From: Clostridiales bacterium
GTDB taxonomy: Bacteria; Bacillota; Clostridia; Monoglobales; WRBX01
NCBI GenBank assembly: GCA_031261985.1
Contig: JAISIR010000020.1
Span: 124,001-188,000, forward strand
Length of the DNA: 64,000 nt
Direction of reading: 5' to 3'
Part shown: in pieces, positions 31,446-33,961 of the stretch
Numbering within the stretch: the first letter of the stretch is position 1
Layout of the letters: each line of letters starts with the position of its first letter
Program-made: the position numbers and the translations under genes
The notes under the pieces: model-generated
Told to the model about the DNA's origin: nothing
The model's input: the letters and a program-made list of their open reading frames with translations, nothing else
Databases searched by the model: none

Positions 31446-31474
31446 ATTATATACCTTTTTTACGTAAATGTCAA
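31446..31474 (-). promoter_or_regulatory. Consensus sigma-A promoter of the AAA+/vWA/J-domain array
   Basis: On the minus strand: TTGACA (31474-31469), 17-bp spacer, TATAAT (31451-31446). Both boxes match the consensus perfectly. The predicted transcript would start near 31438, leaving a ~100-nt leader with an 18-bp palindrome. It is the only strong promoter I see driving the >31-kb array. Confidence 0.8.
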
Positions 31475-31865: not shown

Positions 31866-31941
31866 TGGAGCTAATGGGCGGATTTGAACCGCCGACCTAC
31901 TGATTACGAATCAGTTGCGCTACCGACTGCGCCACATTAGC
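31866..31941 (-). tRNA. tRNA-Thr (CGT)
   Basis: 76 nt including an encoded CCA. Acceptor GCTAATG pairs with CATTAGC, T-arm GGCGG/CCGCC around TTCAAAT, and anticodon stem ACTGA/TCAGT around a loop with CGT, reading ACG codons. The hairpin-string repeat abuts its 3' end. Confidence 0.93.
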
Positions 31942-32007: not shown

Positions 32008-32502
32008 CTACCAGTTAAATACTCCATATCTACCTAGAACTTGGGTATAGTTTACGCAACCATTTTCGGCAAAGCGGCTGTCGAAACTTATGTTGCGATT
32101 GTCGCCCATTACAAAATAGCCATGTGGGACGGTATATGGAAAGGTGATATCGCCTACAGATTGCATGTCTTTTTCGTAAATATAGTTCTCAGAAAGTGCG
32201 ACGCCGTCTACAGAAACAGTGTCGTTGTCGTAATCTATATCAACAGTTTGACCAGCTTTTGCGATTATTCTGCTAATTCTAATTGTTTTATCTGGCGCTT
32301 TAAAGACGATGATATCGCCATTTTCGGCAAAAAGGCGATTGCGCTTGTAGTAAAAGATTTTTTCGCCTTCTGTAAAGGTTGTAAGCATTGCATTGCCAGC
32401 GATTTTGACGGTTCCAAACGTAAAAAAATAAGAAATAACACAAACCAAAATCATGGCGGTAATTGCTACGAACCAGACGAAAGGAGGTTGTTTGGTTTTC
32501 AT
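32008..32502 (-). CDS. Signal peptidase I-fold protein lacking the catalytic dyad
   Basis: 164 aa with one N-terminal transmembrane helix (residues ~9-30) and then a type I signal peptidase (S26) domain. Family boxes are recognisable: VKIAGNAM where the nucleophile box normally reads x-G-x-S-M, RISRIIA where the Lys box reads VKRIIG, and an intact GDNRNISFDSR. The nucleophilic Ser is Ala and the general-base Lys is Ser, so the protein should be unable to cleave signal peptides. It could be a pseudoenzyme that binds preproteins or regulates another peptidase. ATG with GAGGT upstream; its own promoter is at 32587-32615. The rest of the fold is intact, which argues against simple decay. Confidence 0.85.
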   Translation of the reverse strand: MKTKQPPFVWFVAITAMILVCVISYFFTFGTVKIAGNAMLTTFTEGEKIFYYKRNRLFAENGDIIVFKAPDKTIRISRIIAKAGQTVDIDYDNDTVSVDGVALSENYIYEKDMQSVGDITFPYTVPHGYFVMGDNRNISFDSRFAENGCVNYTQVLGRYGVFNW

Positions 32503-32586
32503 GTTATTACCTCACTTAACTATAAATTTGAATTAGACACTTGGCAAGCAAAAAGTGGTAGAATAATCAAAATTAACAACATGAAT

Positions 32587-32615
32587 ATTTTACCACATCT
32601 GATATATTTTGTCAA
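32587..32615 (-). promoter_or_regulatory. Promoter of the signal peptidase-like gene
   Basis: Minus strand TTGACA (32615-32610), 17-bp spacer, TAAAAT (32592-32587). It starts just downstream of the stop of the preceding M14 peptidase gene. Confidence 0.65.
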
Positions 32616-32622
32616 GAAATTT

Positions 32623-33894
32623 TTAAACTGTAGCGGCATAAAGGAGCATGGGTAAGTTTTGGCTATATATTTGGTTAAATTGCGATATTGGTAACGGGTT
32701 AGTGCCTAAGCCGACCTCGATTGTATATCCTGGGCGGTTAAAATCTTGGATAAACCAATCTTTATACCCTGCATAAGAGGCGATTCCCGTTGCGTTATCT
32801 AGTGCATAGCCGCTAAGACGCGATAGATTCTCACCGATTATCTTGGCTCCTGCAGGCGCCATGTTTTGAAAGTTCCAATATATCACCTGACCTTGGCTAT
32901 GAAAGGCTAGAACGAGCCTAAAGTTATGGTTGCGTGTGAAGTTGACAAGGCTTTGAGTCTCGGGTTCGGACTCGGGCGAGGGACCAGAATATCGGGTGGG
33001 TCCAGGGCCTGTGATGCCATATGCGCTTTCTGCATCTTTAGATAGCTGCCAAGCGGCATTGTAGTTGTGATTTAAATCCACACCATGGATGTTAGCCTGC
33101 CAATTGGTGCTGAAATCTGTGCTGTTGTTATTCCACTCGATAAGGCGAGAATAGTAGGGGTTATCGGGGTTTAAACCGTTTAGCACAAGGTCGACACCGT
33201 CGGGGTTAACCATTGGAATAATATATATTGAAGTGTTATTGAACAGCTCGTTTATGTTGCGCCCGCCAAGGGTTTGACCGAGAGCGTATGATTTTAAATA
33301 TTGCTCGGCAAATTTCATTAAAAGCGGGGTGGTAATCCATTCTAGCGCATGGTGCGAGGCGTTGTAGAACACTTGATTCTCGCCCTTGCCAAGGCGGAGG
33401 TAGTAGATATCTTTACCCAAAACGCTGCTGCCTGCTGCGCCAATTTCTAGGAAAGGATAGCGCGCTTTAAGCCCTGTGATATCGGTTTTAAGCGCATCGT
33501 AAGTGTAACTAATATTGGTATCTACAACATCGATTCCGTAAGGGACGATTATTTGCGTGCCGATTTGGAGGTCGGTAGCGTTTAGCCCTGGGTTGGCAGC
33601 GATGATTAAGTTGGTATTTGTGTGGTAGCTTTGCGCGATTTTGTAGAATGTGTCGCCCGATTTTATTGTGTAAGTATCGTAGCCTAGAAGGTAGCGGTTT
33701 AGGGTGTTCCAGGTTTGAGTGCCGATGATTCCGTCGGGCGTTAAGCCATTTGACGATTGAAAGCGTTTGATTGCGTCTTCTAATTGTGTGCCAAAAATTC
33801 CGTCGATAGTGGTGATTCTATACCCCATTTTACGAAGAAGAGCTTGGATTTGCATTACATCGGTGCCAGACATGCCAAGTTTTAATGTTCTCAT
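32623..33894 (-). CDS. M14 zinc carboxypeptidase with PG-binding and LysM domains
   Basis: 423 aa from the ATG at 33894; a GTG four codons upstream overlaps the AAGGAG site. Domains: a peptidoglycan-binding type 1 domain (residues ~1-65, with the DGIFG and DGIIG repeats), a LysM domain (~70-120, YTIKSGDTFYKIA), then an M14 peptidase. Zinc and catalytic residues are visible: HHALEW (H-x-x-E), FHSQGQ (His ligand), and Glu in YTIEVG. The substrate-binding box reads DLNHNYN where many homologues have DLNRN. Most likely a gamma-D-glutamyl-diaminopimelate endopeptidase acting on cell-wall peptides. No signal peptide, which suits a spore or lysis-released enzyme. Confidence 0.87.
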   Translation of the reverse strand: MRTLKLGMSGTDVMQIQALLRKMGYRITTIDGIFGTQLEDAIKRFQSSNGLTPDGIIGTQTWNTLNRYLLGYDTYTIKSGDTFYKIAQSYHTNTNLIIAANPGLNATDLQIGTQIIVPYGIDVVDTNISYTYDALKTDITGLKARYPFLEIGAAGSSVLGKDIYYLRLGKGENQVFYNASHHALEWITTPLLMKFAEQYLKSYALGQTLGGRNINELFNNTSIYIIPMVNPDGVDLVLNGLNPDNPYYSRLIEWNNNSTDFSTNWQANIHGVDLNHNYNAAWQLSKDAESAYGITGPGPTRYSGPSPESEPETQSLVNFTRNHNFRLVLAFHSQGQVIYWNFQNMAPAGAKIIGENLSRLSGYALDNATGIASYAGYKDWFIQDFNRPGYTIEVGLGTNPLPISQFNQIYSQNLPMLLYAATV

Positions 33895-33961
33895 TTTACA
33901 ACACACTCCTTAGGGGAAGTATATGCGAGGGAGGGTGAGGAAATGATATAGCGATAAGTGT

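What the first reader, a model, noticed from the sequence alone, without database searches (positions are those of the whole stretch)
32008..32502. Signal-peptidase-fold protein with both catalytic residues replaced
Ser to Ala in the GNAM box and Lys to Ser in the ISRIIA box, while GDNRNISFDSR and the membrane anchor are intact and the gene has its own promoter. Decay would not spare the rest. Probably a pseudoprotease that binds preproteins or modulates a real signal peptidase.
Basis: partly seen in the sequence, partly recalled or inferred. Interest (0 to 1): 0.5.

Follow-up and report, generated by a model that had tools for sequence, protein, structure and literature searches.

The report
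Retained catalytically dead signal peptidase
This bacterium keeps a second copy of the enzyme that trims exported proteins; that copy has lost both cutting residues, and a related genus keeps a similarly dead copy, which suggests a job in binding rather than cutting.

Summary
ORF 32008-32502(-), 164 aa, is an S26A signal peptidase I homologue (PF10502 1.5e-26; TIGR02227 1.2e-28). Its nucleophile Ser is Ala38 and its general base Lys is Ser77. A canonical Ser/Lys copy lies elsewhere in the genome. The one other family member held (another genus) also has one canonical and one dead copy, with different replacements (Gly, Thr). This speaks against sequencing error and recent decay. Second copies in 12 genomes of another family of the order have the same Lys->Ser, and 10 of them also Ser->Gly. 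In the 8 of these 12 measured, purifying selection is as strong as on their active partners (dN/dS 0.04-0.11). The AlphaFold2 model (pLDDT 89) fits best to streptococcal SipA, a known dead signal peptidase needed for sortase-built pili. But no sortase was found in either genome of this family (94% and 91% complete), and the gene lacks other marks of clostridial SipA-like proteins. I read it as a membrane-anchored, non-cleaving preprotein-binding pseudoenzyme: retention is well supported, the binding role is inferred, and a regulator of the active peptidase is the main rival. Its descent is unresolved. New variant of a known kind.

The parts
32008..32502 (-). CDS, 164 aa, S26A signal peptidase pseudoenzyme (P0001)
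32389..32391 (-). codon 38 GCA (Ala) at the nucleophile Ser position, box B GNAM
32272..32274 (-). codon 77 AGC (Ser) at the general-base Lys position, box D RISRIIA
32074..32106 (-). box E GDNRNISFDSR (residues 133-143), intact
32419..32484 (-). N-terminal membrane helix (residues 7-28)
   Evidence: DSSP of the AlphaFold2 model; hydrophobic sequence
32587..32615 (-). promoter-like TTGACA-17-TAAAAT with TG before the -10
   Evidence: consensus match only
32510..32515 (-). putative ribosome-binding site (GTGAGG) upstream of the ATG
   Evidence: my reading of the sequence
32623..33906 (-). upstream neighbour: LysM/PG-binding M14 zinc carboxypeptidase (context, not part of the claim)
31866..31941 (-). 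downstream neighbour: tRNA-Thr(CGT) (context)

Best explanation
It is a retained signal peptidase I pseudoenzyme. A single N-terminal helix anchors it in the membrane, and the S26 beta-domain sits outside. It keeps the fold and a hydrophobic S1/S3 groove but has no nucleophile and no general base, so it should bind Ala-X-Ala-type regions or other segments of exported proteins without cutting them. The most likely job is to hold or present a subset of exported proteins at the membrane (a SipA-like mode of action, but independent of sortase), alongside the canonical housekeeping peptidase encoded elsewhere. Shown: homology, loss of both residues, predicted fold, a canonical copy in the genome, a doubly dead counterpart in a second genus, no detected sortase. 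Inferred: external orientation, peptide binding, client-holding role.
For: Own genome: canonical copy (GPSMQPT, IKRVIA) on contig C3, in a neighbourhood (L19-like gene, signal peptidase, RbgA-like gene, names by my reading) shared with the canonical copy of G001. G001, the only other family member held (2 of 2 genomes), has a canonical copy and a dead copy: Ser->Gly, Lys->Thr, and also MGDNR->MEDNR at the Gly that abuts the catalytic Lys. In SipA the same Gly is Asn140 (PMC4049620, section 8 read). The two dead copies form one clade with the catalytic columns masked (99/87; 88/85 in a wider set), are 41% identical over 155 codons, and differ most at third codon positions (identity 0.57/0.65/0.34). 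Parallel case: second copies in 12 genomes of family f5 have Lys->Ser in 12 of 12 and Ser->Gly in 10 of 12. For 8 of these 12 genomes I measured dN/dS: 0.040-0.113 against 0.048-0.091 for the active copies of the same genomes (13 pairs within two groups). Rarity: of 57 further homologous ORFs read outside the order, 56 keep Ser and Lys and 1 has Lys->Arg. Fold: pLDDT 89.1, pTM 0.83; best matches SipA 4n31 (VIA Z 18.1, rmsd 2.3, 128 aligned) and SpsB (Z 16.5, rmsd 6.7, 151 aligned, 4wvj; Z 16.3, rmsd 2.4, 130 aligned, 4wvh). Peptide pockets: by SpsB numbering (PMC4704075, passages) Ile32, Met37 and Val76 correspond to I34, M39 and I76 here (my offset mapping).
Against: No binding partner or client was identified. 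The dead copies of the two f1 genomes share no neighbouring gene in what I fetched, and the hydrophobic protein overlapping G001's dead gene is not found in G000 at E<=10. Cleft positions are not enriched for identity to active enzymes (window: 5/11 against 52/117; similarity 8/11 against 64/117), and in G001 the residue at I34 is Ser. The cleft list came from recall of the E. coli structure. Many positions that are invariant in f5 active copies vary in f5 dead copies, as relaxed constraint would give. In an unmasked quick tree of 70 rows the two f1 dead copies were successive branches, not one clade. In the published SipA work, direct binding to pilin, sortase or peptides could not be shown (PMC4049620, first part of the discussion read). 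dN/dS could be measured only in f5, not for the window gene (dS could not be computed).
Confidence: 0.5

Rival explanations
1. Regulator or non-catalytic partner of the housekeeping signal peptidase: it competes for substrates or pairs with the active copy, as pseudoproteases do with active relatives (CspC with CspB) or with clients (iRhoms).
For: A canonical copy is present in both f1 genomes; in f5, 12 of 13 genomes of g6 and g15 have a canonical plus a dead copy, the exception (G043) being 74% complete. CspC activating CspB and iRhoms as regulators: abstract starts in a search listing.
Against: The dead gene is not next to the active gene and has its own promoter-like site. No co-variation or complex prediction was run.
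Confidence: 0.25
2. Decoy that soaks up signal peptidase inhibitors such as arylomycin-type lipopeptides, protecting the active enzyme.
For: The S26 groove binds arylomycins (3iiq and 3s04, arylomycin complexes of E. coli signal peptidase, are among the fold matches).
Against: No inhibitor cluster was looked for; the Ser and Lys that contact such inhibitors (recalled) are gone.
Confidence: 0.07
3. A slowly decaying duplicate without function.
For: It evolves faster than the active copy (dead pair 41% against active pair 55% identity) and has lost most of the C-terminal FRxWP segment.
Against: Intact ORF with both residues replaced in two genera, third-position-biased divergence, promoter-like sequence upstream of both copies (my reading), and strong purifying selection in the parallel f5 case.
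Confidence: 0.08
4. An enzyme with altered catalysis that uses other residues.
For: Two f5 relatives keep Ser while Lys is Ser (L049, L097), so intermediate states exist; R75 aligns with SipA Lys83.
Against: Here the nucleophile is Ala, and the two dead f1 copies share no new Ser, Cys or Lys at the two sites. In SipA the residues at these places were dispensable (PMC4049620).
Confidence: 0.06

Closest known systems
SipA of Streptococcus pyogenes pilus (FCT) clusters (PDB 4n31), a signal peptidase-like protein; not the Salmonella effector of that name
   Same: S26A fold (best structural match), N-terminal anchor, both Ser and Lys lost, groove retained, basic residue two places before the lost Lys (R75 here, Lys83 in SipA)
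   Different: No sortase detected in this genome; different replacements (Ala/Ser against Asp/Gly); lies outside the 100/100 SipA-like clade; lacks the RxR[GS][IL] C-terminus of the 8 clostridial SipA-like proteins read here
SpsA of Staphylococcus aureus, inactive signal peptidase paralogue
   Same: Dead S26A paralogue kept beside one active enzyme in the genome (PMC12445088, passages)
   Different: SpsA is recalled to lie next to the active spsB gene; here the two genes are inside different contigs. The SpsA sequence was not compared.
Second signal peptidase copies of family f5 (L049, L062, L081-L089, L097)
   Same: Lys->Ser in 12 of 12, Ser->Gly in 10 of 12, loss of the C-terminal FRxWP segment, one canonical copy in the same genome
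   Different: They nest in the housekeeping lineage of families f3/f5/f6 (100/98) and share its ~12-residue insertion, which the f1 dead copies lack

Membership tests
Bacterial type I signal peptidase (S26A, TIGR02227), as a fold family | profile match above the curated cut-off | tested here: met
   100 bits against 47; PF10502 93.8 against 22.9
Bacterial type I signal peptidase (S26A), as an active enzyme | catalytic Ser in box B | tested here: not met
   Ala38
Bacterial type I signal peptidase (S26A), as an active enzyme | catalytic Lys in box D | tested here: not met
   Ser77
Bacterial type I signal peptidase (S26A) | box E GDNR..S.DSR | tested here: met
   GDNRNISFDSR
SipA-like pilus-associated signal peptidase homologues | loss of the Ser/Lys dyad on an S26A fold | tested here: met
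SipA-like pilus-associated signal peptidase homologues | gene beside a sortase in a pilus cluster | tested here: not met
   no sortase in G000 or G001 at E<=1 (genomes 94% and 91% complete). Control: 7 of 8 clostridial SipA-like genes have a sortase match within 2 kb (4 above the Pfam cut-off, 3 below it at E 1.8e-5 to 2.6e-4); the miss is G072
SipA-like pilus-associated signal peptidase homologues | falls inside the SipA-like clade | tested here: inconclusive
   outside the 100/100 clade of 9 rows; sister to it at 71/28 only; grouping with the f1 canonical copies not rejected, p-AU 0.348
SipA-like pilus-associated signal peptidase homologues | C-terminal RxR[GS][IL] seen in 8 of 8 clostridial SipA-like proteins here (my own observation) | tested here: not met
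   ends GRYGVFNW
SpsA (S. aureus) type | located next to the active spsB homologue (recalled) | tested here: not met
   dead copy inside C17, canonical copy inside C3, neither at a contig end
Pseudoprotease of S26 | experimentally shown lack of activity with a retained binding function | not testable with these tools
   no wet experiment

The most novel reading that the evidence does not exclude
This bacterial order has repeatedly turned a duplicated signal peptidase into a non-catalytic partner or client-holding factor. The pair then works as a two-component signal peptidase system (one cutter, one non-cutter), loosely like the non-catalytic subunits of the eukaryotic signal peptidase complex, and independent of sortases and pili.
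Probability: 0.18. Interest if true: 0.72.

Novelty: new variant of a known kind. Interest (0 to 1): 0.47.

Why it matters
Dead signal peptidases are described, in what I read, as pilus-assembly factors (SipA) or as an inactive S. aureus paralogue (SpsA). A dead copy kept in two genera without a detectable sortase, with a parallel case under strong purifying selection in another family, means that losing the dyad can be useful outside pilus assembly. It gives a concrete set of proteins for asking what a signal peptidase fold does when it only binds. It also warns that an annotation model for active signal peptidase I (TIGR02227, equivalog) scores this protein above its cut-off.

Tried and rejected
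Sequencing error or recent loss: judged unlikely (second genus also doubly dead). SipA-type pilus role: no sortase found. Single origin of f1 and f5 dead copies: rejected in one data set (p-AU 0.005, 62 rows) but NOT rejected in a wider, sparser one (p-AU 0.289, 60 rows; f1+f5+SipA-like p-AU 0.298). The ~12-residue insertion favours two origins; I treat two origins as likely, not shown. The first quick tree (70 rows, unmasked) did not join the two f1 dead copies. Before the tree I dropped 8 of those 70 rows (L014 x2, L015, L029, L099 x2, L100, L101) as long or distant; L044 and L093 had been left out already. In one search my 'sipA-like' label included three canonical proteins (L219, L220, L221); one search uses the corrected nine rows. 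Gene neighbourhood: nothing shared between the two f1 dead copies. In f5, 9 of 12 fetched loci hold a gene of one decarboxylase cluster and 5 of 12 a gene of one giant-protein cluster; their family names were checked on L109 only. A scan of named genomes with P0001 alone gave nothing. The scan with the two-row alignment gave 22 loci: 20 canonical, L119 (same protein and contig length as G001's dead copy), and L130 with Lys->Arg. The third S26 match in the genome (L044) is a Ser/His frame of another S26 type and was set aside. The class sample is biased to high-scoring matches and multi-copy genomes: 70 loci taken from the matches in 283 genomes. Literature: the listings of searches of the held open-access library showed no title or abstract start describing this protein group outside SipA and SpsA; subscription journals are not held, and I did not read most listed papers. 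dN/dS used YN00 with a fall-back to NG86, and the script did not record which was used per pair; the pairs share lineages and are not independent.

Full report
What is there. The ORF at 32008-32502 lies on the minus strand and encodes 164 aa. It matches Peptidase_S26 (1.5e-26, 93.8 bits against a cut-off of 22.9) and the signal peptidase I equivalog model TIGR02227 (1.2e-28). The nucleophile position is Ala38 (codon GCA) and the general-base position is Ser77 (codon AGC). Getting from a Lys codon to AGC needs two base changes. Box E (GDNRNISFDSR) and the anchor helix are intact. A promoter-like TTGACA-17-TAAAAT site with TG lies between this gene and the upstream M14 carboxypeptidase gene (consensus only). 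The sequence upstream of the G001 counterpart also reads TTGCAA-17-TATTAT (my reading of the sequence printed).

Active copy. The genome (1.44 Mb in 21 contigs, 94% complete) has two matches by protein search. By family search it has four at E<=10: the window gene, the C3 copy and a third partial frame (L044) pass the cut-off, the fourth does not. The C3 copy has GPSMQPT and FIKRVIA. Its two flanking genes fall in the same clusters as those of the canonical copy of G001 (c104 and c102); I read them as rplS and rbgA homologues from the sequence, without a family search.

Relatives with the same state. The family holds one other genome. It too has one canonical and one dead copy: GEGM (Gly) and HITRII (Thr), plus MEDNR and SGGSR in box E. 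The record behind it is 'MAG: Clostridiales bacterium isolate Gx485_bin226' (L119). With the two catalytic columns masked, the two dead copies form one clade (99/87; 88/85 in a wider set); in the unmasked quick tree of 70 rows they were successive branches. They are 41% identical over 155 codons, with codon-position identities 0.57, 0.65 and 0.34; the active pair is 55% identical over 181. So the dead state predates the split of the two genera or arose on both lineages, and the gene stayed open in both.

A parallel case. From the matches in the order (51 genomes held, 45 with a match) and in nearby class genomes, 73 distinct homologous ORFs were read: 56 have Ser and Lys. The 17 others are the two f1 dead copies, 12 second copies in family f5 (11 of 12 genomes of genus g6 and 1 of 1 of g15), L015 (SipA-like, Thr/Arg), L044 (Ser/His) and one ORF with a gap at both columns. 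All 12 f5 copies have Lys->Ser; 10 have Ser->Gly and 2 keep Ser, which suggests the Lys was lost first. For 8 of the 12 genomes, in two groups, 13 pairwise dN/dS values are 0.040-0.113 for the dead copies and 0.048-0.091 for the active copies. In f5 (12 dead and 13 active rows), 25 positions are invariant and identical in both sets, a few are invariant but different (for example Trp for Leu at window position 49 and Ser for Lys at 77), and many positions invariant in the active copies vary in the dead ones. This looks like changed and partly relaxed constraint, not lost constraint. The 12 f5 dead copies and the two f1 dead copies end shortly after box E and lack the full FRxWP C-terminal segment of most active copies.

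How rare. Outside the order, 57 further ORFs were read from 70 loci (some of which repeat order genomes): 56 have Ser and Lys and one has Lys->Arg. Of 22 named loci found with the two-row alignment, 20 are canonical, one is G001's own dead copy and one has Lys->Arg.

Fold. AlphaFold2 with 19 sequences gave pLDDT 89.1 and pTM 0.83. Foldseek ranks SipA 4n31 first (E 1.4e-8). VIA-align gives SipA Z 18.1 (rmsd 2.3, 128 aligned), SpsB Z 16.5 (4wvj, rmsd 6.7, 151 aligned) and 16.3 (4wvh, rmsd 2.4, 130 aligned), and E. coli signal peptidase 15.1-16.3. A shared fold does not show function. With SpsB numbering from PMC4704075 (passages read) I map S1/S3 residues Ile32, Met37 and Val76 to I34, M39 and I76. 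The pocket stays hydrophobic in the window protein, but identity to active enzymes at 11 recalled cleft positions (5/11) is no higher than elsewhere (52/117).

SipA comparison. SipA is a dead signal peptidase essential for pilus polymerisation (PMC4049620: abstract, introduction, sections 8 and 9 and the first part of the discussion read). Clostridial SipA-like genes were found in 8 genomes (of 11 with hits among 291 searched; the other 3 hits are canonical). 7 of these 8 have a sortase match within 2 kb, 4 of them above the Pfam cut-off and 3 below it (E 1.8e-5 to 2.6e-4); the miss is G072. Neither f1 genome has any sortase match at E<=1. Of the 12 f5 genomes with a dead copy, 7 have a sortase above the cut-off, one (G022) only a weak match and 4 none; no match lies within 100 kb of the dead copy on the same contig, as far as the contigs reach. 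In the tree the f1 dead copies are sister to the SipA-like clade with weak support (71/28), and grouping them with the f1 canonical copies is not rejected (p-AU 0.348). So the window gene works plausibly like SipA in binding without cutting, but I do not file it as a SipA.

Origins. f1 and f5 dead copies as one clade is rejected in one data set (p-AU 0.005) and not rejected in another (p-AU 0.289). f5 dead copies share a ~12-residue insertion with the f3/f5/f6 active copies, which the f1 dead copies lack. Two origins are likely, not proven.

Conclusion. Retention of a doubly dead signal peptidase is well supported (I put it at 0.9). A non-cleaving preprotein-binding role is the most likely mechanism (0.5), a regulator of the active copy the main rival (0.25).

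Noticed in passing
window 1607-26730 (-): Twelve consecutive large ORFs (402-815 aa) all carry an N-terminal DnaJ domain (12 of 12) and otherwise no Pfam match at E<=0.01 except one sub-threshold PX hit. Upstream of them lie a weakly vWA-like protein, a protein without match, and an 862-aa AAA ATPase. A striking co-chaperone array.
   Followed up: partly
window 31446-31474 (-): Perfect 12-of-12 sigma-A consensus promoter (TTGACA-17-TATAAT) right at the listed start of the 862-aa AAA gene upstream of the DnaJ array, so the true start codon is probably further in.
   Followed up: no
L130 (Blautia MAG RGIG513) and L190 (G119): Signal peptidase homologues with Lys->Arg at the general base but Ser kept; possibly further dead or altered copies.
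   Followed up: no
L211-L218: Eight clostridial SipA-like dead signal peptidases, 7 of 8 within 2 kb of a sortase match (3 of these below the Pfam cut-off) and 8 of 8 ending RxR[GS][IL], a tail that may be a family mark.
   Followed up: partly
L033 4509-5003 (-): In the related genome G001 a 164-aa hydrophobic protein overlaps the end of the dead signal peptidase gene; no Pfam match, no match in the window's genome.
   Followed up: partly
L105-L109, L112, L113, L116, L117: In family f5 the dead copy lies near an Orn/Lys/Arg decarboxylase-type gene in 9 of 12 loci, with an AdoMet decarboxylase-type gene between in 6 (Pfam checked on L109 only).
   Followed up: no
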